This document shows positions 650 through 17,805 of a DNA stretch of 64,000 nucleotides, in pieces. The position numbers and the translations under genes were made by a program. The notes beneath the pieces were generated by a model. The model did no database searches and had not been told where the DNA came from. It was given only the letters and a program-made list of their open reading frames with translations. Numbering within the stretch: position 1 is the first letter of the stretch; every line of letters begins with the position of its first letter. Source of the stretch: an uncultured Pseudomonadota bacterium (GTDB taxonomy: Bacteria; Myxococcota_A; UBA796; GCA-2862545); contig CAJXTB010000001.1 in the NCBI GenBank assembly GCA_913061235.1, positions 310,001 to 374,000 on the forward strand, in the 5' to 3' direction.

Positions 650-2068
650 CTACTCGTCAGCCATCGGCGGGAAATCGAGTAAGAAAGTGGTACCAACCCC
701 CACTTCACTTGCCATTCGCAGAGTACCTCCCATACTCCGCATCGCCCGCGTGACGATAGCGAGGCCAAGTCCGGTGCCCGGTACATCTGAAGCAGCGCGC
801 TGGAGCGGCTGGAGCACGCGCTTGGCATCCGACCGCTTGATGCCGCGGCCATTGTCGCTCACCGTGAGCGTGACCCCACTGTCAGGACGCAGACGACTAC
901 CGATCTCAATGATCAGCGCTCGACCTGGGTCTCGGTAGGTGAGCGCGTTCTCCACGAGGTTCTGAAAGACCTGCACCAAGGCTCTGTGGGAACCAACAAC
1001 GCTCGGCAGGTCGGCAATGCGCACAATCGGCTTCACCTCTTCCAAAGGCCCCGCGAGCTGCGCCAGAGACTCCTCCAAGCACGACGAGGCTTCGACCTCA
1101 GTGAGCGATTCGTGCGCGCTAGATTGGGCAAAGACAAGAAGGTCTCTGACCAGACAGGTCATCGTGGTTGCCGCTTCCATCATGTAGTGCAAACATGTCT
1201 CGGCGTTCTCGCCCGTTGGATTGGCGGCAAACAGCTCGCCAAACTGGGACATTCGTCGAGCTGGCGCCTTTAGGTCGTGGGCGGCGTGGGACGCGAACGC
1301 TTCCAGGTCCGCCGTTCTCTCCTCCACGAGTTTGGTAAGCCGCACTCGCTCTTGGGCGTGACGCATGCACTGAGCCAGCCAACTCGCGGTGCATCCGATT
1401 CGGGGCAAGACCTCATCAACCCCCTCACCGATGAGGGCGGCACTGGCCTCTTCGGTGATGACGACCAGAGGGGCCTCGGCCATCTGAACGACTGTCTTGA
1501 CGTCGTCATCTGCGCTCCGATGCCAGACGAGGATATCTCTCGACCCTCCGGTCAGTTCCGAAGCTGTCTTCAGGATGCCCACAGTAGCCTTGGGGTCGAT
1601 GAGTGCCGCCGCCTCCCGGGCAAGCTGTACAACGTCTGGATCCGAAGTGATGACGTGGATAATGGGGCCATCGATATTGGGTACCAGCCATCGCCTGACC
1701 AGCCGTGCTGCGAGCTCCCGTAGCGGCTCCAGTCCACTTGGCTTGACCTCGAACCCGCTCGCACCGGCGAGAAGAGCCTTTTCCTGGTCACCTCGCGCTT
1801 CGGACGTGGTCAACACCACGGCTGGAATTGCACGGGTATCCGGTGTCTCGCGGAGCCACTTGAGAACCTCATGCCCCGAGCGGCCAGGCATCTTGAGGTC
1901 GAGCAGAATCAGCTGTGGCGGTGAGCTGCGAGCCATCAGGTAGTGCGACAGTTCATCGCCGTTGGGCAGTCGATGGCACCGTGCGCCGGCTCGAGCCAAC
2001 GCGCCCAGAATTAGCTCGGCATGGTCATTATTGTCCTCTACAAGGAGGATGGGTGGCTCAGAGTGCAT
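650..2068 (-). CDS. Receiver-histidine kinase hybrid (REC at N-terminus)
   Basis: A soluble 472-residue kinase with the receiver first. REC spans residues 5-125 (Asp57 phosphoacceptor in LLDLKMPG, Lys109 in VKP). A region at about 135-228 resembles a second, degenerate receiver without an obvious phosphoacceptor. The HisKA H-box follows (SHAAHDLKAP, His264), then an HATPase domain with the N-box (NLVENALTY) and G-boxes (DNGRGI, GTGLGL). The ATG at 2068 lies inside the last codons of the upstream ethylene-receptor-like kinase gene (11-nt overlap), so the two are probably translationally coupled. The arrangement suggests it takes phosphate or a signal from a partner kinase and then acts as a kinase itself. 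Its target is unknown. Confidence 0.82.
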   Translation of the reverse strand: MHSEPPILLVEDNNDHAELILGALARAGARCHRLPNGDELSHYLMARSSPPQLILLDLKMPGRSGHEVLKWLRETPDTRAIPAVVLTTSEARGDQEKALLAGASGFEVKPSGLEPLRELAARLVRRWLVPNIDGPIIHVITSDPDVVQLAREAAALIDPKATVGILKTASELTGGSRDILVWHRSADDDVKTVVQMAEAPLVVITEEASAALIGEGVDEVLPRIGCTASWLAQCMRHAQERVRLTKLVEERTADLEAFASHAAHDLKAPARRMSQFGELFAANPTGENAETCLHYMMEAATTMTCLVRDLLVFAQSSAHESLTEVEASSCLEESLAQLAGPLEEVKPIVRIADLPSVVGSHRALVQVFQNLVENALTYRDPGRALIIEIGSRLRPDSGVTLTVSDNGRGIKRSDAKRVLQPLQRAASDVPGTGLGLAIVTRAMRSMGGTLRMASEVGVGTTFLLDFPPMADE

Positions 2069-3206
2069 TGGGAAACTCCAATCGGAAGCGTGCTCCTCCG
2101 AGGTCCGATTCATCAACCCACGCGCGGCCACCATGTCGCTCCGCAACACGGGCCACAATCGCGAGTCCGACCCCGGTTCCTTGTTCGTCGCTGTGCAGTC
2201 GCTCGAAGAGCTGGAAGACACGCTCGGCATGCTCAGTGGGTACGCCGCGACCGTTGTCTTCGACACTTACAATAATGCTGTCCAGACCGGCCTCCACCGA
2301 CACTCTGGTCTGGCCTTTGCCATACTTAATCGCGTTCGTGATGAGGTTCTCCATGGCCTGCGTGAGTCGCTCACGGTCCGCCCAGAGCGTGCCTAGAGGG
2401 CCACGAATCTCTACCTGAATACCGTCCTCTTCAAGCTGACCGCGCAGTGGCGCCAACACGCCTTCTACCACATCATCGAGGTTGATTTCAGAGGGTTGAT
2501 GCTGGCCATTTCCGATTCGGCTGATGGTCAGCAAATCCTCGAGCAGCGCCTGCATGCGAACGCCCGCGCTCCGAATGCGTTGGAGATGTCGGCGGGTCTC
2601 TTCTGGGTCTCCTTCCAGCGACTCAGCGGCCAGGTCGACGAACCCACTCATGGTGACCAAGGGCGTACGAAGGTCGTGTGAGACCGTGTAGACGAACTCT
2701 TCCATGTCAGAGTTTCGTCCCTGTAATGCTGTGTTTGATGTGGCCAGATCGCCCCTGGCTTGCTCCAATGCAACCGCGTTGAGTTGAAGCTCGGACGTAC
2801 GTTGTCGAACGTCGAATTCCAGAGCCTCTGGATAGCGCATGGACATCATGCGCGGAACGACAGGAATCAGGGAGAGCACGGTTGCCCAAGACACCAAAGC
2901 GGTGATGAGCTTGAGTCCCCCTGCCAGTCGGTACATTGGCTTCCAGAAGATGATGGCTTCGAGCAGATGGGTGGTGCCACAGGCGAAGACGAACACCACG
3001 AAGAGGGCGACGATACGCGGGAACGGAATATCTCCACGCCTACGCACGTAAATAATGCCCAACAAAACCGGAATAGCCATGTAGGCCATGAACACCATGA
3101 GGTCGGATGTGATGTGCACCCACCCATGGGTGTCCGACCACTGCCCACAGTGCCACCGCGCCGGAAAGTCATCGGTGTTGAACAGGCTCATAAGGAACTC
3201 AAGCAT
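2058..3206 (-). CDS. Histidine kinase with ETR1-like (ethylene-receptor type) membrane domain
   Basis: A 382-residue membrane kinase. Residues 30-120 hold three hydrophobic helices laid out like the ethylene-binding domain of plant ETR1 and cyanobacterial SynEtr1. SDLMVFMAYMAIP carries the conserved Asp35 in helix 1. FACGTTHLLE in helix 2 has Cys76 and His80 in the Cys-x3-His spacing that ligates the copper cofactor in ETR1. Helix 3 contains LITALVSWATVLSL. A coiled linker leads to HisKA (VSHDLRTPL, His177) and HATPase (NLITNAIKYG, DNGRGV, GTGVGLAI). The start is ATG 3206, with an in-frame ATG at 3191 as alternative. Known family: ETR1 binds ethylene and SynEtr1 is reported to sense ethylene and light. 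Ethylene binding here is inferred from residues only. Confidence 0.85.
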   Translation of the reverse strand: MLEFLMSLFNTDDFPARWHCGQWSDTHGWVHITSDLMVFMAYMAIPVLLGIIYVRRRGDIPFPRIVALFVVFVFACGTTHLLEAIIFWKPMYRLAGGLKLITALVSWATVLSLIPVVPRMMSMRYPEALEFDVRQRTSELQLNAVALEQARGDLATSNTALQGRNSDMEEFVYTVSHDLRTPLVTMSGFVDLAAESLEGDPEETRRHLQRIRSAGVRMQALLEDLLTISRIGNGQHQPSEINLDDVVEGVLAPLRGQLEEDGIQVEIRGPLGTLWADRERLTQAMENLITNAIKYGKGQTRVSVEAGLDSIIVSVEDNGRGVPTEHAERVFQLFERLHSDEQGTGVGLAIVARVAERHGGRAWVDESDLGGARFRLEFPNAL

Positions 3207-3424
3207 TCCGACTCTCTCGTTGGTTCTGGTGCCTTCGACCCGCGCGACAAGGGTGACCGACGTCAAGTTTGCAGGAAGCTACCCTAGACTGCAGTGAAGG
3301 CGGCCGCCTAATGACGACGTTGTAACGAGTCACTACTCAACGGTTGTTCTCCCCTTCCCACAACCTGCAATCACGGTGCAAATCCATGCCCGTGTTTGGC
3401 TCCTAGTGCCCGACGGCCAACTCA

Positions 3425-5038
3425 CTACACAGCAATCGAACACTCCAACGGTAACTGCAGCAGGAATGTGGCCCCATGACCCGGCCCCCGGCTGTCACAG
3501 GTCAGCACGCCACCCAGCTCCCGAGCCGCGCACGCACTCGCATGCAAGCCAAACCCGTGGCCATCTGCACGCGTGGTGAAGCCTTGAGCAAACACACGAG
3601 AGAGGTTGGCCGGCGGAATACCAATGCCATTGTCGCGTATCCGAAACGACAAGAAGGCCTCTTCCTTCTGGCATCGAACCCACATCTGACGCCCATCTTC
3701 ACGTGCGGGTACGACCGCCTGAACGGCATTAGACATCAGGTTGACCAGAATCTGTAGGACCTTGTGCCGGTCAATGCTCAAATATGGCAGGTCATCGACC
3801 TCACACGCGACGCCGACGCTATTCTGGGCAATCAGCTCGGCGTTGAGTGTGAGTGCATCGTCCACCAGCTCTTGGGCCGTGCACACCTCGCTCACTCCGG
3901 CAGCCTTGGCAAACGACTGCTGGGTAGCCACAATCCGACGAATGTGGTCGATGTTCTTCGACAGTTGCTTGGCCTCGCCAACCACAGCGATTCTGTCTGC
4001 ATGCAGCTTACAGGCGAGCTTGCGGACGTACTGCGCAATCTGAGCGCGTCGGGCTGGGTCAGAAAGGTCCATCTCTTCATTCGCCAAGAGAATCGCCAGC
4101 GCTTCAAGTCGGCCATCCAGCAGACCCTCCACCTTGCCGCAGACCATCGATGCGCTCACATTGACGCTGTTAAGGACGTTACCTACATTGTGCAGAACAC
4201 CGGTTGCAACCTCGGACATACCTGCCAGCCGCGATGCCTCAATCAGCTCGCTCTGCGTTGCGCGCAGCTTCTCAAGACTGTCCTCGAGGCGGTCGTTCAC
4301 ACGGGTGAGCTGGTGCGTTCGAACCTCTACCCGCTCTTCGAGGTCTTGCCGCGCTTCATGCAGTTGGCGATTCATCTGGACCGCGTCCAAGGTCACTTCA
4401 ACGTCGCCGCGAACAATCTGAAGAAACGGCTCGTCATTCCGCCGTGGCTCGGCTTCCAGGTATCCGCGACTCTGACCACGCGGCAGTGTGGCGACGAGCA
4501 GGCCACGCGGGGTTCCGTCCTGGCCTCGCGCAGTCAGTACAACATTGACCTCGGCCTCGCGACGCGGGTGTAGGTCAGCCGGCGGGTCCAACCCATCCAC
4601 AATGTCGAGCACCCGGCAGATGTCGGCCTCTGGCTGTTCGTGCACGGCTTGGCACGACGGCAGCTCTTGTAGGTCGTAGAAGTGGAACCAGGAATCGACC
4701 TGAAATTCTTGTTGTTCCTGACCATCTCGATGCACAACCACTTCGGCCTGGCCATCGTCGAAGACGACGCCCACGACCATGGGTACCGGGTAGACATCCC
4801 GAATCAACGCCACCCACGCCCGAACAACGGCCCCTGCGGAACGAGCCCGTGCGGTCGAGAGCGTGAAGGCATTGAGCTTACGCATCCGGTCCATCTGGCG
4901 TTCGAGGTCCCGCTCCATGGCGTAGCCCCGACGTTCAGCCTGAACGAGCAGCTGCACTTCTTCATCCACAATCCGTCGCTCGGACCTGCAGCGCTCAAGT
5001 CGTTCTTCAAGCTCCGCAATACGGTCGGCCGGGCTCAT
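3425..5038 (-). CDS. Cytosolic sensor histidine kinase paired with FIST protein
   Basis: A 537-residue protein without membrane segments. An N-terminal coiled coil (5-55) precedes a GAF-like sensory region (about 58-220), a second coiled coil (222-270), and a kinase core. The H-box is LAGMSEVATGVLHNVGNVLN (His283), a variant H-box common in kinases encoded next to FIST proteins. An N-box (LVNLMSNAVQA) and G-boxes (DNGIGIP, GHGFGLH) follow. The ATG at 5038 starts 1 nt after the FIST stop codon, with GGAGGG just upstream, so co-translation is very likely. It presumably transduces the FIST ligand signal. About 220 bp separate it from the ETR1-like kinase, so those two may have separate promoters. 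Confidence 0.83.
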   Translation of the reverse strand: MSPADRIAELEERLERCRSERRIVDEEVQLLVQAERRGYAMERDLERQMDRMRKLNAFTLSTARARSAGAVVRAWVALIRDVYPVPMVVGVVFDDGQAEVVVHRDGQEQQEFQVDSWFHFYDLQELPSCQAVHEQPEADICRVLDIVDGLDPPADLHPRREAEVNVVLTARGQDGTPRGLLVATLPRGQSRGYLEAEPRRNDEPFLQIVRGDVEVTLDAVQMNRQLHEARQDLEERVEVRTHQLTRVNDRLEDSLEKLRATQSELIEASRLAGMSEVATGVLHNVGNVLNSVNVSASMVCGKVEGLLDGRLEALAILLANEEMDLSDPARRAQIAQYVRKLACKLHADRIAVVGEAKQLSKNIDHIRRIVATQQSFAKAAGVSEVCTAQELVDDALTLNAELIAQNSVGVACEVDDLPYLSIDRHKVLQILVNLMSNAVQAVVPAREDGRQMWVRCQKEEAFLSFRIRDNGIGIPPANLSRVFAQGFTTRADGHGFGLHASACAARELGGVLTCDSRGPGHGATFLLQLPLECSIAV

Positions 5039-5039
5039 T

Positions 5040-6245
5040 CTACTCACCCTCCGACAGCGCAACCAGAACGACCGTGTAGTTGTGGAACTCTGTGGCACCG
5101 CCCAGAGAGGCAATCTCACCAAACGTGTGCAGTCCAACCACCGGACAGTCGTCAAATGCATCCTGCACTGGCTGCGCGATGGATGCCGTAGTCCTGTCGC
5201 CAAAGAGCAAGCCCCCACGACCCGCACAGTCGAACTGCAGCACGACAAATGCGTTGGGGGCACTCTCGCGAAGCGCACACGACGCACGAACAACCGACTC
5301 GGTGATTCGGGTCGGGTCGCGACGCGTCAGTCGGACAACCGTGCCCTGCTCCAAGCCGCCGGGAAACATGACCTCGCCGGTCTCTAAGTTCACGCCCAAG
5401 GGCATTCGAATGATGTAGTCGCCATAGTCGACGCCACTCGGGACCTCGACGCGTCGGCCCAACGCGAAGTGTGCGCTGTCCATCGCATCAAATCGGGGTC
5501 GGTTCCCCACGTAGTCTTGCATGACCTCCCAAGCCGGTCGGTCGTCCATCGTGCCAACGAGCCGTCCGTCAGACTCGGTGACGGTCATCTCCCGGCCGAC
5601 CGGCCGACAGCCGTGATTGACTTGTGTGGTGACATCAACTGGACCACAGATGACGAGGCCACACACAGCATTGCTCAGCGCGCGCCCGTCTGCATACTGG
5701 AAGGTCTTGTTGAATGCCAGCATGTCGCCGGCCGTGCCACCTAGGATTTCCACATTGGGACAGCCTGCGTCTAAAGCCGGGAACAATTTGGAGACGTTCC
5801 CCGCTAGGCCGTCTGGAAAGAGCAAGAGTACCTGCGCATCTGGCAAACCAGACACCTGCTCGGCCAGCTCAACACCGCAGCGCTCTTCGTCACCCGACAA
5901 CCCTTCGCTGAACACGGGTACAAACCGCAGAGAGTCCGACGAGAACGCCACCAAGACCAGAGCGTTCGCCTGCTCAGACGAGACGCCATGGCAGATGACG
6001 CCTTCCCCCGAGCATCCAATGACGGGCGTGCCCGGCGGTAGCTGTGTGGCGAGCTGGACCGCGATTGCGTCCTGATCGTAGCCAGCCGTAGCGAACACCA
6101 AGACCGCATCTATTCCAGCGCCGTCCAGCGCCTCAGCCGATGCGACTCGGGCCTCTTCAACGGCTTCGCACTCGTCCACTGCCCGACTAAATCCTACGCC
6201 GCAACGAGACTGTCCAGATCGCACGCCTTCCAGAACTGTGGACAC
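5040..6245 (-). CDS. FIST N/C domain signal-sensing protein
   Basis: A 401-residue protein. The N-terminal half matches FIST-N: AVLVFATAGYDQDAIA, PVIGCSGEGVI, a run of beta strands, then an EILGGTAGD motif. The C-terminal half matches FIST-C: NPAxxV-type region, FECxGRGGLLFG-like segment FDCAGRGGLLFG, and a terminal VVGLHTFGEIA followed by FHNYTVVLVAL. FIST proteins are proposed small-ligand (possibly amino-acid) sensors linked to kinases and cyclic-nucleotide enzymes. The start is a GTG at 6245 with GGAGG at 6250-6254. The open frame extends upstream without another credible start. It is the first gene of the minus-strand signalling cluster, divergent from dapA, with the kinase at 5038 directly behind it. 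Confidence 0.85.
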   Translation of the reverse strand: MSTVLEGVRSGQSRCGVGFSRAVDECEAVEEARVASAEALDGAGIDAVLVFATAGYDQDAIAVQLATQLPPGTPVIGCSGEGVICHGVSSEQANALVLVAFSSDSLRFVPVFSEGLSGDEERCGVELAEQVSGLPDAQVLLLFPDGLAGNVSKLFPALDAGCPNVEILGGTAGDMLAFNKTFQYADGRALSNAVCGLVICGPVDVTTQVNHGCRPVGREMTVTESDGRLVGTMDDRPAWEVMQDYVGNRPRFDAMDSAHFALGRRVEVPSGVDYGDYIIRMPLGVNLETGEVMFPGGLEQGTVVRLTRRDPTRITESVVRASCALRESAPNAFVVLQFDCAGRGGLLFGDRTTASIAQPVQDAFDDCPVVGLHTFGEIASLGGATEFHNYTVVLVALSEGE

Positions 6246-6367
6246 AGGACCTCCATCGGCTCTCTTCGGTCCATTCTGTACATTTCTAAAGCGAAAGTTC
6301 GTCAAGACAGACGGAGCTGGCAGCCCAACAGGAACAGCGCTACGCGGTCGATCATTAGGAGGTCCGC

Positions 6368-7264
6368 ATGGGACAGCTCTCACCCGCTCGCTTCGGTCGT
6401 GTTCTCACGGCCATGGTCACCCCATTCGCACCCAATGGCGACCTAGACCTCCACGCAACGGCGGCACTCGCCAAGTGGCTCGTTGCCCACGGAAGCGACG
6501 GACTCGTGGTCAATGGCACCACCGGTGAGTCGCCAGCTCTGTCCCCCAAAGAGACGCTCCAGCTCTTCAGAGCCGTTCGAGATGCCGTGGATTGCCCAGT
6601 CATCGCAGGAACGGGAAGCAACGACACAGCGCACGCCATTGCCCAGAGCAAGGCTGCAGCCGACATGGGTATGGACGGGCTGCTCGTGGTCACGCCGTAC
6701 TACAACCGCCCTTCACAAGCGGGATTAGAGCAGCACTTTAAGGCCGTCGCTGGCGCTACTAAGACCCCGGTCGTTCTATACGACATTCCTTCGCGTGCGG
6801 GTCGAAAGGTAGACACCGACCTCATCATCCGCCTGGCGAATGAAGTCGAGACCATTGTTGGTCTCAAGGACGCCGCCGGTAATCCTGCAGAGACTGCCCG
6901 GGTCATCGCCGAGGCACCGGCCGATTTTCAGGTGTACTCGGGTGATGACGGACTGACCCTTCCGCTGTTGTCTGTTGGGGCCGTTGGCGTGATTGGCGTG
7001 GCGACACACTGGGCCGGTGAACGCATCAAGGCTGTCATTGACGCTGTTGACGCCGGTGAGCTCGCCACAGCGCGACGACTGAATGCCGAGCTCATCGAGA
7101 GCTACAGCTGGGAATCCACCTTAGCCGCGCCCAACCCGATTCCAGCAAAGGCCGCCATGCGAGCGCTGGGCCTCGCAGTTGGTCAGTGCCGCTTGCCCTT
7201 GGGAGACGCACCCGAGGGTCTGGACGCTGAAGCCCGCGCCTTGGTCGCGCGCCTGCGCAGCTAG
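6368..7264 (+). CDS. dapA: 4-hydroxy-tetrahydrodipicolinate synthase
   Basis: A 298-residue enzyme of normal DapA length. It condenses pyruvate with aspartate semialdehyde in the lysine/meso-diaminopimelate pathway. Visible motifs are the GTTGE substrate loop (Thr51-Thr52), the YYNRP segment, the catalytic Tyr138 (LYDIPSR) and the Schiff-base lysine Lys167 in VGLKDAAGN. The start ATG has GGAGG at 6358-6362. A methyltransferase begins at the very next base after the stop, so the two form an operon. The 122-bp gap to the divergent FIST gene must hold both promoters, but no clear -35/-10 pair was seen. DapA-family aldolases act on several keto acids, so the exact substrate is the family default. 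Confidence 0.92.
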   Translation: MGQLSPARFGRVLTAMVTPFAPNGDLDLHATAALAKWLVAHGSDGLVVNGTTGESPALSPKETLQLFRAVRDAVDCPVIAGTGSNDTAHAIAQSKAAADMGMDGLLVVTPYYNRPSQAGLEQHFKAVAGATKTPVVLYDIPSRAGRKVDTDLIIRLANEVETIVGLKDAAGNPAETARVIAEAPADFQVYSGDDGLTLPLLSVGAVGVIGVATHWAGERIKAVIDAVDAGELATARRLNAELIESYSWESTLAAPNPIPAKAAMRALGLAVGQCRLPLGDAPEGLDAEARALVARLRS

Positions 7265-7918
7265 ATGTACACGCTACGGCGATGGGTAGAGTCCGTCGGC
7301 GGACATGCGCTGACCATTGACGGTATCGCGAACTTTGAGGATGCCTGCACGGTCCTTGCGAATCGCGGGCCCGAGGTCCACGCCAACTACCAGAACCTGT
7401 GTCCGATGTTCGGCGTCACTTGGCCGGCGGCACGTGGGCTGTGCCAACGTCTGAGCACCACCTCGCTGCGCGGTCGCTCCGTGCTGGAGCTCGGCTGCGG
7501 TCTGGCCCTGCCAAGCCTGGTGGCCGCAAAGATGGGTGCACGGGTTGTCGCCACCGATCAGCATCCGGACACCGAGGCCTTCCTGCGCAGAAACATGCAC
7601 AACAACGGCATCACCGCACTTCGGTACGAGACGTTCGATTGGCACGGCACACTGCCGGCGGGCGTACGTGAACGTAGCTTCGACCATGTCATTGGCAGCG
7701 ACGTCCTGTACACCATCGAGATGCCGGACATCTTGGCGCGGGCCTACGAACGCTTCATTGGCCCCAACGGTACCGGCTGGCTCACCGACCCGGGGCGCCC
7801 CTGGCTGACCGAGTTCATCAGCGCCTGCGAAGGCCTCGGATTGTCCGTCTCAGACGACGTGGTGGTCGGTGACGACGGCAAAGACGACGCATTCTTGCTG
7901 TTGCTTCGCCGTACCTGA
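7265..7918 (+). CDS. Class I SAM-dependent methyltransferase (protein-lysine type)
   Basis: A 217-residue protein with a Rossmann methyltransferase fold. The SAM-binding motif I is VLELGCGLALPSL (about residues 77-89), and an acidic residue after strand 2 (VVATDQHPD) fits ribose binding. The post-I region HVIGSDVLYTIE resembles the METTL/Methyltransf_16 group, which includes protein-lysine methyltransferases such as ETFB-KMT. It has no signal peptide and should be cytosolic. Its ATG directly abuts the dapA stop codon (zero spacing), implying translational coupling. The target, protein or small molecule, cannot be read from sequence. Confidence 0.78.
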   Translation: MYTLRRWVESVGGHALTIDGIANFEDACTVLANRGPEVHANYQNLCPMFGVTWPAARGLCQRLSTTSLRGRSVLELGCGLALPSLVAAKMGARVVATDQHPDTEAFLRRNMHNNGITALRYETFDWHGTLPAGVRERSFDHVIGSDVLYTIEMPDILARAYERFIGPNGTGWLTDPGRPWLTEFISACEGLGLSVSDDVVVGDDGKDDAFLLLLRRT

Positions 7919-8302: not shown

Positions 8303-10258
8303 TCAACCGGTCGGGGCGGTGGTTGACACGTCGAGCCATGTCAGCAGCGACGTTGCCGTTTGCACAGGAGTTGTGGCGAGCAACCCGCGCTCGATGCGCC
8401 CGTGCCGCAAGCGGACTGGACTCTCGGACAGCTGCTTGTTCAGGGCATCTACGGCAGCGGGAGTGCGGCGGGAGACGTGCCAGCGACCGTAGCTGCGTGC
8501 ATCAATGCGCTCGGACAGGGCCATAGCGATGCGTCCGAGGGTGTTGCGTGCGTTGGTCTCCAGCCACGGGTGCACGGCCAAGCGCCCCTCTTCGCGAACC
8601 ACTGCGGCATCGATCGACAGCGGGCCTTGGTAGCCCAGAGACTGCGCCCACTCGCCAGCCCGTCGTGCAGCAGCCAGAAGAATCGGCTCCACCGGCTCAC
8701 TGTCTCCGCCGCCATGAATCTCGCGCTGTATCTGCGCGGGTAGCCCCCGAGTCCAACGCCCCAGCCAAGCGCCTGTGTACGCACCATTGGGAGCCGTCTC
8801 GAAGCGGCTGATGCCGTCAATACGCACGTCATCGTCAACCGTCACATGCACCGACAGGTCGAGCACGCGCTCGTACCAAGGCTGCACCAGGACCTCGCCA
8901 TGGCGCTCGAGTTGGCGAAGAAGCCAGGTACGGTGGGCGTCTGACAGTGGCCCGCGGCCTCGGATGCGCTGCGTACCTGACGCACTAAACGGGGCCTTGA
9001 TGACCCACGCACCGTCGCCGAGGTCCTGCTCTTCTGTCCAAACCGAGCCACGGTCTGCAACGAGCCCGGGGACGTCTAGGGTGTGAAACTGCCGCGCGGT
9101 CGCCGTCTTGGAGGACAAGGCCTGCCACGCCGGGTTCCACTCGGGCGTGCGGCCCAACACCTCGACATCATCCGGGACATGAACATCTGGGTTGGGGCCC
9201 CAGGGCTCGACCGAGCCAAGTGGGTGAACCCCCAGCTCGGCGCGCGTGAGTGAGTCGACGAACCGCGGCACGACAAAGCCCGCATCCGCGAGAGCGCCAC
9301 AGAATGCTGGCGACGGACGCGGAGCGACGACGGTGTCGTGCGTCGCACACAAGAACATTGGTAGAACGGCTAGATCAGCGGAGACACGGGTGGAAATCGT
9401 GCTTCGAGCCGTGCCGCTGACCACCTCTTCAATGCCAGCATCGAACCAGATCACGCGGCCTGGGCGACCGCGAGAGCCTCCGACAGTACGCAGGCGCTCG
9501 ACCTCCTGCTCAGTGAACCCGGCGGACAAGCGCCCGACACGGTCGAACTGTGGACCCCGATTTCTAGCGGGGGTGAGTGGCGGCGGAAGGTGCTGCTCCC
9601 ATGCATCGATACGGTCGCCCTCTGTCCACCGGTCAAACCACACCAGACCATGGGCCACATGCCGGATTTCGTCCGTGTACACCACTGACAGAACATCCGC
9701 GGTCTTGTGGTCACCCGCGTCCGCAAAGCGCGTTCGCCAGGTCTGGCAGAAGTCCAAGTTGGCGACCTCAAAGCACAGGGAGAGCCCCGCCAAGAACGCT
9801 TCAGGGGTCTGAACGCCGCCCAACGTGTCCCAAAAGAAGCGGCTCACGGGCACCACGCCGACATCTTCCCCACACGCACGAAGACGAGCCAGGTACATGG
9901 CACAGTGGCGCTGCTCATCTCGAAGCGTGGCGACCAATCCACGGCGAAACCCGGCGGGAGCGTCTGGCCAGCGCAACAACGCCAGCGCAATCAGCTCAAT
10001 GGCTTGCAGCTCGTGATTCGCGAGCTCATGGAGTACCCGAGCACGCCCATCATTGGCCTGAAGGTCCGCTTTCCACACGCTGGGCAGCTTGCGGTGGGAC
10101 GTTGGCAGCGCCAGTTCTTTCGGGCGTCCTGGCAGCAGCGGACGCGTGTGTGCAGCCCCACCACGAACATCTACCTCGGGCCATGCCTGGAGCTTCTCCG
10201 CAAGGGTGATGCCGTACAGGGCTTGCTCGGCGTAGGTCTGGACAGAAGCTGAAGTCAT
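8303..10258 (-). CDS. DUF455 ferritin-like domain fused to ATP-grasp domain
   Basis: A 651-residue two-part protein. Residues 1-250 look like DUF455, a ferritin-like di-iron fold related to MiaE. Candidate ligands are HELANHELQAIEL (Glu78, His82/Glu83, Glu88), DEQRH (Glu115, His118), Glu164 and YTDEIRH (Glu197, His200). Residues about 290-630 resemble an ATP-grasp ligase: an ATP-contacting lysine strand (WVIKAPFSASG), EVLVQPWYERVLDLS with a conserved acidic residue, and a metal site ending LETNARNTLG. The fusion would join an oxygen/iron redox domain to a carboxylate-amine ligase-type domain. The product is unknown. It ends 8 nt after the GH16 gene stop side, so it is co-directional and probably co-transcribed with its neighbours. 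Confidence 0.72.
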   Translation of the reverse strand: MTSASVQTYAEQALYGITLAEKLQAWPEVDVRGGAAHTRPLLPGRPKELALPTSHRKLPSVWKADLQANDGRARVLHELANHELQAIELIALALLRWPDAPAGFRRGLVATLRDEQRHCAMYLARLRACGEDVGVVPVSRFFWDTLGGVQTPEAFLAGLSLCFEVANLDFCQTWRTRFADAGDHKTADVLSVVYTDEIRHVAHGLVWFDRWTEGDRIDAWEQHLPPPLTPARNRGPQFDRVGRLSAGFTEQEVERLRTVGGSRGRPGRVIWFDAGIEEVVSGTARSTISTRVSADLAVLPMFLCATHDTVVAPRPSPAFCGALADAGFVVPRFVDSLTRAELGVHPLGSVEPWGPNPDVHVPDDVEVLGRTPEWNPAWQALSSKTATARQFHTLDVPGLVADRGSVWTEEQDLGDGAWVIKAPFSASGTQRIRGRGPLSDAHRTWLLRQLERHGEVLVQPWYERVLDLSVHVTVDDDVRIDGISRFETAPNGAYTGAWLGRWTRGLPAQIQREIHGGGDSEPVEPILLAAARRAGEWAQSLGYQGPLSIDAAVVREEGRLAVHPWLETNARNTLGRIAMALSERIDARSYGRWHVSRRTPAAVDALNKQLSESPVRLRHGRIERGLLATTPVQTATSLLTWLDVSTTAPTG

Positions 10259-10266
10259 GCCGACAC

Positions 10267-12675
10267 CTATCCGGGTGGTCCATCTACAGGAAGCTCTCCG
10301 AACAGCAGCAACGTGTTGTCACCGTCGGCGCGCCCTCTCAAGATGACGTCGTCAGCGCCATCTCCATCGACATCCGCCGCTAGAGGTTCGTGGGTGCGGG
10401 ACGACCAGTTGGCGGGTCCGAGGGCATTGCGCCGCGTCCAGTCCACAGCATCCGAAAACTCGCCGTCTTCACTCAACAATGCCCAGGTTGTATCCGCGGC
10501 TTGCCTTCCTACGAGCAGCAAGTCCACGGCATCGTCGCCGTTCACATCTGCCCAGAGTGGGGCGTGAGAGTTCTCCGCCCAGTCGGTCGCACTCAGTCCG
10601 AACCGGAAGGTCCAGGGCAGCGCGGTGCCTAGTGTTCCACCGTTGTTGCGGGCGAACGTTGTCAGGTCGGCACCGCCTCGCCCTTGCAGCAAGACATCTG
10701 CGTCGCCGTCACCGTCCATGTCGGTCAGATGCAGACGATGGTCAGATGCCGCCCAGATGGCGTCTGTGATGCCACCTTCGTCGGTCCAGTCATCGTACAG
10801 TAGGAAGCCCGTCTCCGTGGACAGCAGCACAATCGGGAACTGGGTGCGGGTGCGCGGCTGGAGCAGCAGGTCATCATCACCGTCGCCATCTAGGTCCGCC
10901 ACATGGGGAATGCGGCGGCTCAGTGTCCACCGGGAGGCGTTCATGCCGGCAGCATTGGTCACGTCCGTAGCCGTCTCAAGGCCATCTCCCCGTCCCAACA
11001 ACCGCAAGGCCGTACCGGTCGGTCCGGTCGGCAACAGCAAGACATCCGCACGGGTGTCTCCATTGAAGTCCCCCACCACCGGTTCGTGTCCTGACCAGCT
11101 CGCACGCGAGGTCAAGTTCACAACGTCCGACGGCCCTTGCTCACTTCCGAGAACTGCGCGCGTGGGGCCCGAGCCACGTGGCACAAGCAACGCGTCGTCA
11201 AAGCCATCTCCGTTGACGTCGAGGACGACCATCGTGTGGGCTTGAGCATCCCAGCTTGCCGCAGACATGCCGTCCACAGTGGTCACCGTGCGCTCGTGGT
11301 CGAAGCCATCCACGGCGTGGCCAGGCATCCAGTAGGTCGCGTGCTGGTCTAGAGCGGTCTGCAGCAACAGGTCGTCTAGGCCGTCTCCGTTGAAGTCACC
11401 GGTGTGGCTGACGCGGAAGGATGCTGCCCACTTGGCGCTGCTCATCCAGAAGCGATTGCTGATGTTGCCGGACCCAGAGCCAACAATCCCGCACGAGTCA
11501 TCTGTTGGCGGACATCCTTCGTACACCCGAACCCAGTCAATGCGGTGTTCGAGTCGTTCAAACAAATCAATGTCCCAACCCCCCGTCTTGACGACCGAGG
11601 TGTTGAGGATGAAGTAGAACGGGTCGTCTGGAATATCGACGGGGAAAGCTGGCCATTCCGAGCCAATGAGCGAGCCATCGTTCGCTCCAATGACGTCACC
11701 AATCAGCGGCGTACCCGCCATCAGCTCGCCGGTCATCCAGTCGTCTACGTAAAACCGCAGGCGGTCGGGTGTCCACTCCACCGCGTAGGTGTGCCAGTCT
11801 TCGGCGAAACGCGGCTCACCAGGGTTGTGGTGGTTTCCGCTGGAGTGATGCACGCGCACATCATCGACATCCATGCCTCCGTGGAAGCTGCCGTGAACAT
11901 CTGTCGGGTCGTGAGCGACAGCCTCCATGATGTCGATCTCGCCGTCATTCGGCCAGCCTCCATCTGTTGGAAGCAGCCAGTGTGCGGGCCATGCACCGAG
12001 CTGGTTGGGGATGATTGCGCGCACTTCGAAGCGCCCGTAGGCCTGGTCAAACCCGGTCGGAGCGTGGTTGGGATTGCTGAGAACCGCACCGGCACGAATG
12101 GGACAGTTCTTAGAGACGTAGGAGTTCGGTTGGTCCACGCCGCAGTTCCAGGGTCCATCCCCTGCGGCGTGGTCTGCGGACAATCGCAGCTCACCGTCCA
12201 CCACCGCGACCTGGGCTGGGTCCAATGCGTTGATGCCTTCGCCGCGAGACGACAAGCCCCAGTCCATCCAGTTGTAGATGTCGTAGACCGCCCACGTACA
12301 CTTGTTCAGGTCCGCCACCTGGGCATGCATGGCACCATCGCAGTCGGCGGTCGACCAGTAGCGGTCCATGCAGACGGGTGGCGTAGTGACCGCGTCGTAG
12401 CAGGGGTCGTTTGGCGTGGTCGGGCCGTCAAAGTCGTCTTCGAAGGTCAGACGCCAACGGCGAGCGAGCTGACGCGGCGAAGGCTCAACGGGGGCGTCCG
12501 TATCGGCATCCGTGTCAGTGTCTGTTCCCAACTCCGTGTCGTCGTCCACTTCCGTGGACGCATCTGTATCGGCGGTCGTGTCGGTGCCATCCGAGGACTC
12601 AGTACCGGGGTCGTCTCCGGTCTCCACCATCTCAGACGGTCCGCACGCGACGAGCAAGAGCCAAAGTGGCCACAT
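10267..12675 (-). CDS. Lipoprotein glycoside hydrolase family 16 with FG-GAP repeats
   Basis: An 802-residue surface protein. The lipobox is LLLVAC (Cys11), followed by a Thr/Asp/Ser linker (about 16-62). A GH16 beta-glucanase domain (70-390) follows, with the catalytic signature GEIDIMEAV: Glu246 as nucleophile and Glu251 as acid/base around Asp248. After residue 400 come roughly six FG-GAP/VCBS-type calcium-binding repeats (DxNGDGxDD motifs) that should form a beta-propeller. GH16 enzymes cleave beta-1,3/1,4-glucans or galactans; the exact polymer is not clear. The ATG at 12675 has GGAGG upstream. It is the first gene of a minus-strand run leading into the DUF455/ATP-grasp gene. Confidence 0.87.
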   Translation of the reverse strand: MWPLWLLLVACGPSEMVETGDDPGTESSDGTDTTADTDASTEVDDDTELGTDTDTDADTDAPVEPSPRQLARRWRLTFEDDFDGPTTPNDPCYDAVTTPPVCMDRYWSTADCDGAMHAQVADLNKCTWAVYDIYNWMDWGLSSRGEGINALDPAQVAVVDGELRLSADHAAGDGPWNCGVDQPNSYVSKNCPIRAGAVLSNPNHAPTGFDQAYGRFEVRAIIPNQLGAWPAHWLLPTDGGWPNDGEIDIMEAVAHDPTDVHGSFHGGMDVDDVRVHHSSGNHHNPGEPRFAEDWHTYAVEWTPDRLRFYVDDWMTGELMAGTPLIGDVIGANDGSLIGSEWPAFPVDIPDDPFYFILNTSVVKTGGWDIDLFERLEHRIDWVRVYEGCPPTDDSCGIVGSGSGNISNRFWMSSAKWAASFRVSHTGDFNGDGLDDLLLQTALDQHATYWMPGHAVDGFDHERTVTTVDGMSAASWDAQAHTMVVLDVNGDGFDDALLVPRGSGPTRAVLGSEQGPSDVVNLTSRASWSGHEPVVGDFNGDTRADVLLLPTGPTGTALRLLGRGDGLETATDVTNAAGMNASRWTLSRRIPHVADLDGDGDDDLLLQPRTRTQFPIVLLSTETGFLLYDDWTDEGGITDAIWAASDHRLHLTDMDGDGDADVLLQGRGGADLTTFARNNGGTLGTALPWTFRFGLSATDWAENSHAPLWADVNGDDAVDLLLVGRQAADTTWALLSEDGEFSDAVDWTRRNALGPANWSSRTHEPLAADVDGDGADDVILRGRADGDNTLLLFGELPVDGPPG

Positions 12676-13332: not shown

Positions 13333-14382
<1,050 letters not shown>

Positions 14383-14521
14383 GGTGTCTCCTCACTCAAT
14401 TGCCCATCGGACGTAGCACTTCTGACACCGACCTGCTTGATTGAGCAGCGGGCGTTGCACAGTTGTTGCCAAAAACCAAGAGGTTTCTGGACTCACTTGA
14501 AACTATCGTCAGCCGAATGCT

Positions 14522-16186
14522 CTACATCCCAAGCGACGGAAGCAACCAAGATCCCGAAGTTCCCGAAACCAGCAGGCCCGAGTTTCCACAACGTACACGA
14601 CTGCTCTGGGAGACCGAAATCCAAGCATCCGGTACAGGCGGCGCTCCATCAACGAGTCCCGGCCCATAGAACAGTTCGACGCCGTCAAAAGTGAAACCGG
14701 AAATGCCAGTCCGCCGACGCGTTCGGACGGCTAAGTCCACCTCTCCGTCTCGGTTGAAGTCGCACAGCATCGTTGGATCAGTGACGGTGAATACCTCTCC
14801 ATCAGGGTGAGGCCCGAGTGCCGAAAGCGCGATGCTTGGCGCCCCATCGGCATTGTATTGCCGCACCAGCAGCGGCAACGTTCCCGTGCTCGGCCACAAC
14901 CAGTCAACAATGCCGTCCCCGGTAATATCCCAGTTCGCATCTGGTATTGACCGGTTCGAGACACTCTCAAACCCATCCGGAAATGCCGCAAGTGACGACC
15001 ATTCGTACCCGGATTCTCGCGTCATCAACCTCGACACGACAGCAGTTCCGTCCTCCTGTACGGCCGGGAATCGGTCCAGTACATCGACGGAAATCCTGAT
15101 GCCAGTGCGAAATACATCACCCGACACCAGCGGTTCATCAGCAATCACACGGTCCACTCCGTGTGGACTTAGGAGCAAGTGAAATCCATCCCCTAGGGGC
15201 ACGAGAACCTCGTCTACGCCATCGGCATTTTGGTCATTGACCGCAACCAGCCGTCCATCGGGCAAATTCGACCCGGTCATCACGAAGGCCGCATCCGCCA
15301 AGGCAAACGACCCGGCTTCCACTGGCCCGTAGAACACGTAGATGCCTTCCTCATTGCAGTTCAAGGACAAATCTCCGACACCGTCGCCGTTGTAGTCCAC
15401 TTCCCCGCTAGCAGCGTGGCCAGCGCAATCGTAGGCGTCCGAAACTACGGTTGATGGTGAAGGAATCGATGAGTCAAAGGGTCCCAAATACAAGCTGCCA
15501 CTGCCATCGTCCGAAAGGGCAATCCAAGCATCATCCAGCCCATCATCATTCCAATCAGCCATCGCCACGTAATCAGAGGCTCCGAGTTGAATGGTCTCGA
15601 CGCCCGCCGCATCGAGGTCACCCGCATATTCACAGTCCCCCGGCCCCCCATCACAGTCATCATCCAGCCCATTGTTGCAGACCTCCGGCATGCCAGGGTT
15701 CACCTCCGCAAGCCCGTCGTGGCAGTCGTCCCCACCGCTGACAACAGCAATGAACCCGTCACCATCGGCGTCGTTGTCAGCGTCGCCTGAGCAGTCTTGG
15801 TCCACGCCGTTGTAGTAGACCTCTGTGGCGTTGGGGTTGACGTCTGCATCTGTGTCATCACAGTCGACGCCGTTGCTTAGGTCCGTGAAGGAGCCTGCTG
15901 GACGCGCGCACCCTTCCTGGACTTCGGGTGCCGGGAAGCCGTCTTGGTCGAGGTCGACGTACCACTCGACACTTCCCGCTCCAGCGTCATCAGTCAGACC
16001 GTCGCAGTTGTCATCTACACCGTTGCCGCACACCTCTGCTGCATCCGGGTTGATGTTGACGTTGTCGTCGTCACAGTCGTTGCCGTCGAGCTCGGATGTC
16101 TCAAATCCGTCTCCGTCTCGGTCCCGACCTTCCGTCGTGTCAAAGCAGCCAGTGAGAGCAAGCGTGAGCAATAGGGTGATGCGCAT
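14522..16186 (-). CDS. MopE-like Asp/Cys repeat lipoprotein with FG-GAP propeller
   Basis: A 554-residue secreted protein. Its lipobox is LALTGC. Residues 20-185 contain three MopE-type repeats, each with a DxDGDGF calcium-like loop, a CDD, an NP(D/N/G)xxEV and a CDG or CSG ending (for example GNGVDDNCDG). Such repeats are common in myxobacterial and other deltaproteobacterial surface proteins. The rest holds about five FG-GAP-like strands (DWNDDGLDD, DYNGDGVGD, DQNADGVDE, DITGDGIVD, DFNRDGEVD), suggesting an integrin-alpha-like beta-propeller. The start is ATG 16186 with GGAGG at 16191-16195. A role in surface attachment or metal binding is family-level inference. Confidence 0.82.
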   Translation of the reverse strand: MRITLLLTLALTGCFDTTEGRDRDGDGFETSELDGNDCDDDNVNINPDAAEVCGNGVDDNCDGLTDDAGAGSVEWYVDLDQDGFPAPEVQEGCARPAGSFTDLSNGVDCDDTDADVNPNATEVYYNGVDQDCSGDADNDADGDGFIAVVSGGDDCHDGLAEVNPGMPEVCNNGLDDDCDGGPGDCEYAGDLDAAGVETIQLGASDYVAMADWNDDGLDDAWIALSDDGSGSLYLGPFDSSIPSPSTVVSDAYDCAGHAASGEVDYNGDGVGDLSLNCNEEGIYVFYGPVEAGSFALADAAFVMTGSNLPDGRLVAVNDQNADGVDEVLVPLGDGFHLLLSPHGVDRVIADEPLVSGDVFRTGIRISVDVLDRFPAVQEDGTAVVSRLMTRESGYEWSSLAAFPDGFESVSNRSIPDANWDITGDGIVDWLWPSTGTLPLLVRQYNADGAPSIALSALGPHPDGEVFTVTDPTMLCDFNRDGEVDLAVRTRRRTGISGFTFDGVELFYGPGLVDGAPPVPDAWISVSQSSRVRCGNSGLLVSGTSGSWLLPSLGM

Positions 16187-16281
16187 AGGACCTCCGAGGC
16201 AGCAAGGATACGGTCCTACGAACCAGATAGCCAATCGCATCAACTACTACGCGTCTTAGATTTCCACCCCCGGCGTTTCCC

Positions 16282-17661
16282 CTACCCCTCCGGCAGACAC
16301 TCAATGGGTTCGGGCACACCACACTCATCATCCATTGGCACACCCCCCAATCGGTCCTGCACCCACTCCCACTGGAGCAGAATCGACGAAGCAGCGCCTT
16401 CGGTGTGGCCGGCACCTGCGCACTCGATCGTGTCCATGTCGTAGCCTTGGGCGCACAGGCGGGGGATGTCGTCGCGGTTGGTCTGGTGGTAGACGAGGTC
16501 GTCGGCGCCGCTGTAGACGTACAGCACGGGAGTGTCGCTGATGCGCTCGAAGGGTGCGGTGGCCAGCGAGTTTGCGGTAAGGGCGCAGCCCCAAGGTCCG
16601 AAGTCAGCCAGGGTGCCATCGGTCGCGGCCTGACGGAAGGCTTCGGTGTAGACGGTCTCTACGCTGGAGATGTCCGAGTAGGAGTCACCAAAATCGCAGC
16701 TACCGTTCATGGCTGGCAACAGAGTGGACGCGAGCTCGTAGGGCGCTTCGTCTGTCAGCACTTCGGTCAGTGGCTCGTCGAATCCGTACCAGTCTGAGTA
16801 GGTCGCCAACGCGCCGGCCAGTGCGAGCGACGTTGCCCCTTCAACAGTGGCACCTCGTGTTGCCAAGCCCACAACATCTGTTGGCGGAACGCTGGCGACG
16901 ACGCCCACCATATCGGCAGACGGCAGATACCAGGGCGCATACAGCTCGCTCCACAACGCAGCGAAGCCCCCCTCAGAACCACCGAAGAGGATGGTCTGTC
17001 GTGTGACGTCGGCGTCTACTCCCGAAAGCTCGGGTGTCAGTCGCCAGGCAGCTCGCAAGGCGTCCAATGACGCGACCGCGGTGGGCTCTGCAATCACGTA
17101 CGGGTGCACGTTCTCCGATGCTGGACCAAAACCGTTCATTCCCAGGTAGTCCGGCGAGACAACAGCCACGCCCATGCTCGACAACAGCAGGTTGCCCGCC
17201 GCCCCTTCAATGCCGGCAGCGCTGGGCGCACACTCGTCCATGAAGCCCGTGGTTCCATGAAGCCAGGCCACAGTGGGAACGGTCTCGTCTGTCTCGGGGA
17301 AAGACAACAGGGCAGTGGCCTCGACGGTCTGTCCCCTGTCTTGGGTGAGGTAGCGGAAGCGGTACATCCGGACGTCGTAGCGAATGTCCAACAGATCTGC
17401 CGGGAGGCCCGCGCCAGCCAGGACACCACGAATGGCTTGGGCGCTGAGATCGAGCTCGGATGCGCGCTCCCAGCTCACCACGGTGCCGACTTGGTCCAGC
17501 GGAACCCAGTCGTAGGGCGTGGGTCCGCACACACCGGTCGGAAGGTCCGTCAGTGGCGGTGCATCCGAGGTATCCAGGTCGGTATCTGGCTCATCCGTGT
17601 CCCCGGAATCGGGAAGTCCAGGACAGCCGGCAAGCAGACAAAGTAGCGACAGTCGAAACAC
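16282..17661 (-). CDS. Alpha/beta-hydrolase lipoprotein (secretory lipase-like)
   Basis: A 459-residue exported hydrolase. The start is a GTG at 17661 with GGAGG at 17666-17670, giving signal peptide VFRLSLLCLLAGC with the lipid-modified cysteine, then an acidic DTDEPDTD linker. The hydrolase core shows an oxyanion region (AWLHGTTG), the nucleophile elbow GGSEGGFAAL, an acid candidate in YSGADDLVYH and the histidine in GAGHTEGA. The layout resembles secretory lipases and large cephalosporin-esterase-like proteins. Several cysteines suggest disulfides outside the cytoplasm. It is divergent from the TetR gene by 144 bp, and the degenerate palindrome at 17773-17790 could also control it. Confidence 0.78.
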   Translation of the reverse strand: MFRLSLLCLLAGCPGLPDSGDTDEPDTDLDTSDAPPLTDLPTGVCGPTPYDWVPLDQVGTVVSWERASELDLSAQAIRGVLAGAGLPADLLDIRYDVRMYRFRYLTQDRGQTVEATALLSFPETDETVPTVAWLHGTTGFMDECAPSAAGIEGAAGNLLLSSMGVAVVSPDYLGMNGFGPASENVHPYVIAEPTAVASLDALRAAWRLTPELSGVDADVTRQTILFGGSEGGFAALWSELYAPWYLPSADMVGVVASVPPTDVVGLATRGATVEGATSLALAGALATYSDWYGFDEPLTEVLTDEAPYELASTLLPAMNGSCDFGDSYSDISSVETVYTEAFRQAATDGTLADFGPWGCALTANSLATAPFERISDTPVLYVYSGADDLVYHQTNRDDIPRLCAQGYDMDTIECAGAGHTEGAASSILLQWEWVQDRLGGVPMDDECGVPEPIECLPEG

Positions 17662-17772
17662 AGCGCCTCCAAGCCACAGAGTGCCCGTGACGGAGCGAGT
17701 CCGCAACGCTGCTGACGTTTCTCCGACAGGTCTGGACACCAACGCCCTCAAATTTTCCTTGCGCAAATCGGC

Positions 17773-17790
17773 GGACGGAATATTCATTCC
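17773..17790. promoter_or_regulatory. Imperfect palindrome upstream of TetR gene (probable operator)
   Basis: GGACGGAATATTCATTCC differs at two positions from the perfect 18-bp palindrome at 18412-18429. The right arm ATTCATTCC is identical. It lies 16 bp before the TetR start codon, in the gap shared with the divergent hydrolase. Autoregulation by the TetR protein is the simplest reading. Confidence 0.65.
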
Positions 17791-17805
17791 GCATCTGGAG
17801 TCACC

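What the first reader, a model, noticed from the sequence alone, without database searches (positions are those of the whole stretch)
8303..10258. DUF455 (ferritin-like) fused to an ATP-grasp domain
The N-terminal half has a full set of candidate di-iron ligands and the C-terminal half has ATP-grasp lysine and LETN-type metal motifs. A single-chain union of a di-iron oxygenase-like fold with a ligase fold could modify an amino acid or peptide in two steps. I do not recall a characterised protein with this architecture.
Basis: partly seen in the sequence, partly recalled or inferred. Interest (0 to 1): 0.62.

Follow-up and report, generated by a model that had tools for sequence, protein, structure and literature searches.

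The report
Di-iron oxidase–ligase fusion enzyme
One bacterial gene encodes a single protein that joins an iron-binding module of the oxidising kind to an ATP-driven module of the kind that links amino acids; the two modules occur together in many related bacteria, so they probably make an unknown oxidised small molecule together.

Summary
The ORF lies on the minus strand (10258 to 8303, 651 aa). Residues 35-253 are DUF455 (PF04305, E 6e-44). The AlphaFold model (pLDDT 94, pTM 0.90) shows a ferritin-like bundle followed by a complete ATP-grasp enzyme; its closest solved folds are 3wvr (Z 29.4), 8ynd (27.0), BesA (25.0) and 7r8q (24.6), peptide or amino-acid ligases. The six-ligand set E83, E115xxH118, E164, E197xxH200 is invariant in 45 of 45 fusions and 20 of 20 stand-alone relatives; ATP-grasp K421 and N569 are invariant in the fusions, E567 in 44 of 45. 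Of 377 genomes of the phylum, 192 have both halves, 9 only DUF455, 9 only the ATP-grasp, 167 neither. In other genomes the halves are mostly adjacent same-strand genes; in one family they are apart yet both kept. No third gene or precursor peptide was found conserved beside them. Best reading: a bifunctional oxidase-ligase making an oxidised amino-acid amide; the chemistry is inferred. The nearest known kind is heme-oxygenase-like di-iron oxidase plus ATP-grasp ligase clusters (mangotoxin); here the oxidase candidate has another fold and is fused. The papers searched do not describe this pairing.

The parts
8303..10258 (-). The bifunctional gene, 651 aa, start ATG at 10258
   Evidence: relatives start at about the same place in alignment A1
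9485..10258 (-). DUF455 ferritin-like domain, residues 1-258
   Evidence: PF04305 E 6.4e-44 on residues 35-253; model of residues 1-253 alone, pLDDT 90.8; ferritin-like matches Z 13-15
9659..10012 (-). Stretch with the codons of the six candidate di-iron ligands E83, E115, H118, E164, E197, H200
   Evidence: invariant in 45 of 45 fusions and 20 of 20 stand-alone relatives; they fall in four long helices 69-96, 102-128, 152-180, 184-211
8306..9472 (-). ATP-grasp domain including the pre-ATP-grasp part, residues 263-651
   Evidence: rows span 263-651; profile hit 8ynd E 5.7e-5; PreAtp-grasp at E 0.01 or better in 4 of 45 members
8546..9109 (-). Stretch with codons of the conserved ATP-grasp residues K384, K421, D550, E567, N569, R571
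   Evidence: K384 44/45, K421 45/45, D550 45/45, E567 44/45, N569 45/45, R571 45/45
10267..12675 (-). Upstream same-strand gene (GH16 plus FG-GAP repeats), ends 8 bases before the start codon; not part of the conserved unit
   Evidence: blastp at 1e-6 found no relative among the ORFs of the other 61 loci

Best explanation
The protein is a bifunctional oxidase-ligase. Shown: the N-terminal DUF455 domain models as a ferritin-like four-helix bundle with an intact E...ExxH...E...ExxH ligand set; the C-terminal half models as a complete ATP-grasp enzyme whose nearest solved folds join amino acids or peptides; the two halves are kept together in the phylum as a fusion, as neighbouring genes or as genes apart. 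Inferred: the DUF455 domain binds two irons and, with electrons from a general cell reductase, uses O2 to oxidise an amino acid or a small amino-acid-like molecule (for example hydroxylation or desaturation). The ATP-grasp domain activates a carboxylate as acyl phosphate and joins it to an amine, giving an oxidised dipeptide-like product. The order of the steps is not known. That no third conserved gene was found suggests that both substrates come from common metabolism.
For: Domain and fold. Conserved residues. Co-occurrence over 377 genomes: 192 both, 9 DUF455 only, 9 ATP-grasp only, 167 neither. Gene order: of 62 loci, 39 fused, 15 directly adjacent and same strand, 1 with one gene between, 7 with one half only. 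In 24 genomes chosen because they showed only one match, 17 have a strong DUF455, and 14 of these have the ATP-grasp within about 160 bases on the same strand. In family f15, 12 genomes keep both halves, and in the 9 for which both places are listed they are on different contigs or 69 and 126 kb apart. Fusion or fission happened at least twice on a quick tree. The nearest solved folds include BesA, named a ligase of two amino acids, and peptide ligase 8ynd; that 3wvr is PGM1 and that SAOUHSC_02373 (7r8q) is the Asp-Met ligase LdmS is recalled, though one stand-alone relative, L086, hits the LdmS model weakly (E 0.00043). Known pathways pair di-iron oxidases with ATP-grasp ligases (PMC2922099 section 8; PMC13185094 passages).
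Against: No iron, oxygenase or ligase activity has been measured. The solved relatives share only 12-18% identity with the ligase half, so the substrate cannot be read across. For the DUF455 half Foldseek gave no E below 0.001, and Z of 13-15 is modest for a helical bundle. E567 and K384 are each replaced in 1 of 45, and position 459, E in 41 of 45, is Q in the window protein itself. Three stand-alone ATP-grasp rows (L096, L097, L099) have R where the others mostly have K. No redox partner gene was found conserved beside the gene, whereas mangotoxin has one (MboB, abstract). Co-occurrence counts are not corrected for relatedness of the genomes.
Confidence: 0.5

Rival explanations
1. The ATP-grasp half is a ligase, but the DUF455 half is not an oxygenase: it is a metal-binding hydrolase, lyase, peroxidase-like or sensing domain that prepares or controls the ligation.
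For: Ferritin-like folds also store iron or act as peroxidases: the best fold rows include a Dps-like protein, bacterioferritin and rubrerythrin as well as aldehyde deformylating oxygenase. No redox partner gene was found conserved next door.
Against: The full ligand set shared with di-iron oxidases is invariant; that it is the oxidase-type set is recalled. The weak sequence hits include toluene monooxygenase components, E 0.01 to 0.25, beside encapsulin-associated EncC and bacterioferritin. Known partners of such ligases are oxidases.
Confidence: 0.22
2. The enzyme modifies a macromolecule, for example a protein tail, an RNA or a cell-wall peptide, rather than a free small molecule.
For: Both halves occur in 192 of 377 genomes of the phylum and no dedicated neighbours were found, which is more like a general modification than an antibiotic cluster. 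Other ATP-grasp ligases act on proteins (recalled).
Against: The closest solved folds act on amino acids and short peptides (names; partly recalled). In 167 of 377 genomes neither half reaches the thresholds used, so the target would have to be dispensable.
Confidence: 0.17
3. A ribosomally made precursor peptide is modified by this enzyme (graspetide or pheganomycin-like logic).
For: Fold similarity to 3wvr and 8ynd, peptide-ligase structures.
Against: No small ORF within 1 kb on either side and either strand had relatives at more than 3 other loci. A precursor encoded far away is not excluded, and very short or fast-evolving peptides could escape this blastp search at 1e-4.
Confidence: 0.08
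4. The link between the halves is accidental: the genes are neighbours by descent without a shared reaction.
For: Related genomes share gene order, and the counts are not corrected for this. Nine genomes have only DUF455 and nine only the ATP-grasp at the thresholds used.
Against: At least two fusion or fission events; one family keeps both genes although they lie apart; 10 weaker DUF455 places have no ATP-grasp match of the A1 profile beside them.
Confidence: 0.03

Closest known systems
Heme-oxygenase-like di-iron oxidase plus ATP-grasp ligase pathways (mangotoxin MboA with MboC/MboD; operons of PMC2922099)
   Same: A di-iron oxidase acts with ATP-grasp amino-acid ligases in a small gene set; at least 25 such clusters are reported (PMC13185094 passages; PMC2922099 section 8).
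   Different: Here the oxidase candidate is DUF455 with a ferritin-like fold. It is fused to a single ligase, and no conserved redox partner or exporter was found beside it. PF14518 hits in 3 of 45 members are below its cut-off.
ATP-grasp peptide ligases 3wvr/3wvq (PGM1, recalled) and 8ynd
   Same: Same ATP-grasp fold with the part before it, Z 29.4 and 27.0 over 348 and 332 residues.
   Different: 15-17% identity; the aligned chains have 427 and 414 residues, so no room for the di-iron domain; no precursor peptide found here.
BesA, L-propargylglycine-L-glutamate ligase (8yi6)
   Same: Z 25.0 over 348 residues; weak sequence hit. That its pathway uses the di-iron oxidase BesC is recalled; the reference list of PMC13185094 names BesC as a heme-oxygenase-like di-iron oxidase.
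   Different: 13.8 bits against a cut-off of 750, so not a BesA; 14% identity.
DUF455 stand-alone proteins (PF04305)
   Same: Same ligands in 20 of 20 stand-alone relatives aligned here.
   Different: No ligase domain. Against the PDB only weak hits, best E 0.0027.

Membership tests
DUF455 (PF04305) | Profile match above the curated cut-off | tested here: met
   150.8 bits against 34.3; 45 of 45 members of A2 match at E 0.01 or better
Ferritin-like di-iron proteins | Four-helix bundle with E...ExxH...E...ExxH ligands | tested here: met
   Ligands invariant, in four long helices of the model, fold rows Z 13-15 for ferritin-like proteins; against: Foldseek alone gave no E below 0.001
Ferritin-like di-iron oxygenases | Bound iron and O2-dependent oxidation | not testable with these tools
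   needs purified protein
ATP-grasp superfamily | ATP-grasp fold with ATP-binding lysine and Mg-binding E-x-N motif | tested here: met
   the roles of the residues are recalled
PGM1-type peptide ligases | Pre-ATP-grasp domain plus ATP-grasp and peptide-bond formation | tested here: inconclusive
   Fold match Z 29.4; PF18604 in only 4 of 45 members at E 0.01 and below its cut-off in the one member whose score was seen; activity untested
BesA equivalog (NF042917) | Score above cut-off 750 | tested here: not met
   13.8 bits
Heme-oxygenase-like di-iron oxidases (PF14518) | Score above cut-off 28.9 | tested here: not met
   window protein has no hit at E 1; 3 of 45 members hit at E 0.01 or better, best 26.7 bits
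Graspetide / precursor-peptide systems | Conserved precursor gene beside the ligase | tested here: inconclusive
   none with relatives at more than 3 other loci within 1 kb; distant or very short genes not excluded

The most novel reading that the evidence does not exclude
A previously undescribed class of self-contained two-step enzyme, widespread in one phylum, that uses a ferritin-like (not heme-oxygenase-like) di-iron centre in DUF455 to oxidise an amino acid and an attached ATP-grasp ligase to join it to another, making a metabolite that many members of the phylum share and that has not been described. It would give DUF455 its first biochemical function.
Probability: 0.35. Interest if true: 0.75.

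Novelty: new variant of a known kind. Interest (0 to 1): 0.57.

Why it matters
I found no measured function for DUF455 in the papers seen, and the di-iron plus ATP-grasp pairings that I found in print use heme-oxygenase-like oxidases. A single gene whose two activities are both present in about half of the sampled genomes of a phylum, with no dedicated neighbours found, is an easy target: express one protein and look for one product. If it works as proposed, it gives a function to a di-iron family, a new route to oxidised amino-acid conjugates, and a product shared by many related bacteria.

Tried and rejected
Small precursor peptide: ORFs of 20 aa and more within 1 kb of the gene at 62 loci, blastp at 1e-4; none with relatives at more than 3 other loci.

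Conserved neighbour: all-against-all comparison of ORFs of 90 aa and more from 62 loci (about 20 kb or less each). Most clusters in 5 or more loci overlap the gene and are the gene itself or antisense shadows. The largest true neighbour cluster is protein kinases in 19 loci, with 2 members within 300 bases that do not overlap the gene; others (sigma factor, ABC transporter, short-chain dehydrogenase, acyl-CoA dehydrogenase, response regulator, histidine kinase) are in 5-6 loci each.

Lysine/DAP link: the window has dapA convergent with the gene, and the Planctomycetota MAG locus L031 has dapC and a dapD-like gene downstream. At the other loci only weak aminotransferase hits appeared (3 loci, 27-30% identity) and no dapA or dapD hit, so I dropped it.

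BesA as a family name: rejected by score. Heme-oxygenase-like family: hits below cut-off.

Plasmids: tblastn found 14 records, none covering 80% of the protein. ATP-grasp-half matches: 4 Bacteroidota records (best 27% over residues 267-642) and one Streptomyces; DUF455-half matches: 7 alphaproteobacterial and 2 Neisseria records. Of these I looked at the neighbours of three Bacteroidota, the Streptomyces and one Azospirillum record; no partner half is annotated there, in a gene table that is incomplete.

Genomes with one half only: 18 of 377, 7 of them looked at. G376 and G329 end within or right at the pair; G151 keeps only a DUF455 stub (profile positions 2-31) before its ATP-grasp; G109 and G169 belong to family f15, where the halves lie apart; G163 and G233 remain unexplained.

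Wider taxa: the one genome-contig scan gave a single relative, a Planctomycetota MAG. It reaches close relatives only, so rarity outside the phylum is not shown. I did not scan viral contigs or the phage collection. PHROGs had no hit at E 0.001.

Statements on DUF455 in print that I did not adopt: PMC12828279 (passages) lists it under electron transport and Fe-S-cluster biogenesis by database prediction and names a Cys-His-Asp triad protein (4BGF) as DUF455, which does not fit the proteins here; PMC4520260 (passage) relates DUF455 to a fold by designed sequences without naming it in the passage seen; in PMC12090721 (passage) COG2833 is a table entry at E 0.92.

Full report
What is there. The gene runs from 10258 down to 8303 on the minus strand and encodes 651 aa; the start fits the relatives. 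DUF455 matches residues 35-253 with E 6.4e-44. The second half has no Pfam match of its own. A profile of 45 fused sequences, window included (A2), matches the solved ATP-grasp peptide ligase 8ynd with E 5.7e-5 and, weakly, DcsG (0.022) and BesA (0.05). A profile of the ATP-grasp half made mostly of separate genes (A4: 15 from separate genes, 6 from fusions) matches 7r8p best, E 6.7e-6.

Structure. AlphaFold on A2 gave mean pLDDT 94.1 and pTM 0.90. VIA-align over the 1000 best Foldseek chains put residues 263-651 on 3wvr (Z 29.4, rmsd 3.2, 348 aligned), 8ynd (27.0), BesA 8yi6 (25.0) and 7r8q (24.6); after other entries of these same proteins, ATP-grasp enzymes of purine metabolism follow at Z below 20. 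That 3wvr is PGM1 of pheganomycin biosynthesis is recalled; PMC8939145 passages describe PGM1 as an ATP-grasp ligase that links a core peptide with a non-protein amino acid. The DUF455 domain folded alone (A3, residues 1-253, pLDDT 90.8) resembles ferritin-like proteins: Dps-like PA4880 Z 14.8, aldehyde deformylating oxygenase Z 14.5 over 180 residues, bacterioferritin and rubrerythrin about 14. Foldseek itself gave no E below 0.001 for this half, and Z of 13-15 is modest for a helical bundle, so the fold claim leans on the ligands as well.

Residues. E83, E115, H118, E164, E197 and H200 are identical in 45 of 45 fusions and in all 21 rows of A3, which are the window plus 20 stand-alone relatives. 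They sit singly or as ExxH in the four long helices 69-96, 102-128, 152-180 and 184-211. In the ATP-grasp half K421, D550, N569 and R571 are 45 of 45, E567 44 of 45 and K384 44 of 45; position 459, E in 41 of 45, is Q in the window protein and one other.

Distribution. Relatives of part or all of the protein are in 43 of 58 genomes, the own genome included, drawn from its family and order. Over 377 genomes of the phylum the DUF455 profile finds 201 (E up to 1e-50) and the ATP-grasp profile 201 (E up to 1e-20); 192 have both, 9 only the one, 9 only the other, 167 neither (Fisher p 8e-83, not corrected for relatedness). That the phylum is Myxococcota is my inference from genome sizes, not a tool result. 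Of the 218 genomes matched, 66 by my count have one place that reaches from profile position 48 or before to 582 or beyond; I counted these by eye from a listing that is cut at its weak end.

Gene order. In 39 both halves are in one frame, in 15 they are adjacent same-strand genes with DUF455 first, in L100 one alpha/beta hydrolase gene lies between, and in 7 only one half is present. Of these 7, L085 with L086 and L088 with L089 are the two halves from the same two genomes, and for L090 and L117 the ATP-grasp is on another contig; only L116 (G233) truly lacks its partner. In 24 further genomes, chosen because they had one match only, 17 had a strong DUF455 match (E below 1e-60), and 14 of these had the ATP-grasp within about 160 bases on the same strand; of the other three, G376 stops at the contig end, G321 has the halves on different contigs with DUF455 at a contig end, and G109 has only a weak ATP-grasp hit elsewhere. 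In family f15 twelve genomes keep both halves, and in the nine for which both places are listed they lie apart: 69 kb, 126 kb or on different contigs, a few of these places being close to contig ends. A tree of 65 DUF455 domains needs at least two changes between fused and not fused on its starred branches (quick tree); it cannot tell gain from loss. In one search ten weaker DUF455 places (within profile positions of about 37-260) had no ATP-grasp match of that profile beside them, so the pairing seems to belong to this subfamily. L031 is a Planctomycetota MAG with the two genes adjacent and overlapping frames; misbinning cannot be excluded.

Neighbours. No third gene and no small ORF was found conserved. 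The upstream GH16 gene ends 8 bases before the start codon here but has no relative at the other loci.

Mechanism. Shown: sequence families, modelled folds, conserved sites, co-retention. Inferred: iron binding, O2 use, amino-acid substrate, amide product, order of steps. The reasoning is that the nearest solved ligases join amino acids or peptides, that such ligases are known partners of di-iron oxidases (PMC2922099 section 8; PMC13185094 abstract and passages), and that two genes kept together without a third are likely to act on one substrate.

Known or new. Literature searches: 'DUF455' with 'ATP-grasp' 0 papers; 'DUF455' 15 papers, titles and starts of abstracts seen, passages seen in two of them, none with a measured activity of these proteins in what I saw; 'COG2833' 1 paper, one passage seen, a table entry; 'ferritin-like' with 'ATP-grasp' and 'di-iron' 0; two of 'MiaE-like', 'ferritin-like', 'DUF455' 0; 'ferritin-like' with 'ATP-grasp' 2 papers, of which one lists an unrelated fold in a table (passage) and the other is the mangotoxin paper (passages); 'diiron' with 'ATP-grasp' and 'oxygenase' 5 papers, of which I saw passages of PMC13185094 and passages and one section of PMC2922099. 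The library holds open-licence papers only, so absence there is weak. The kind (di-iron oxidase working with an ATP-grasp ligase) is known; a ferritin-like DUF455 oxidase candidate, fused, spread through a phylum, is a new variant.

Noticed in passing
2058-6383, minus strand: A histidine kinase with an ethylene-receptor-like N-terminal domain (ETR1_N, E 3.7e-32) near another HATPase protein and a FIST-domain protein: a possible signalling cluster.
   Followed up: no
6368-7918, plus strand: dapA directly followed by a small methyltransferase gene, convergent with the finding; L031 has dapC and a dapD-like gene after its ATP-grasp gene, but no dapA or dapD relative was seen at the other loci.
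   Followed up: partly
13333-18087, minus strand: Run of probable surface or secreted proteins: lamin-tail domain (just below its cut-off), MopE-type metal-binding motif, secretory lipase.
   Followed up: no
60588-62666, minus strand: A pyridine-nucleotide-disulphide oxidoreductase fused to an AIR-synthase-related domain (SelD-like, recalled).
   Followed up: no
L129-L131: Bacteroidota carry a stand-alone, unannotated relative of the ATP-grasp half (Parabacteroides 27% over residues 267-642), with no DUF455 annotated within 6 kb.
   Followed up: partly
L132, match at 6001-6390: A Streptomyces plasmid protein matching part of the ATP-grasp half (residues 447-591) lies among radical SAM, acyl carrier protein, condensation-domain and MFS transporter genes, which looks like a biosynthetic cluster.
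   Followed up: no
L122 (G151), L123 (G163), L116 (G233): ATP-grasp genes without a DUF455 partner; in L122 a DUF455 stub of about 30 residues is left, which may be a deletion or an assembly error.
   Followed up: partly
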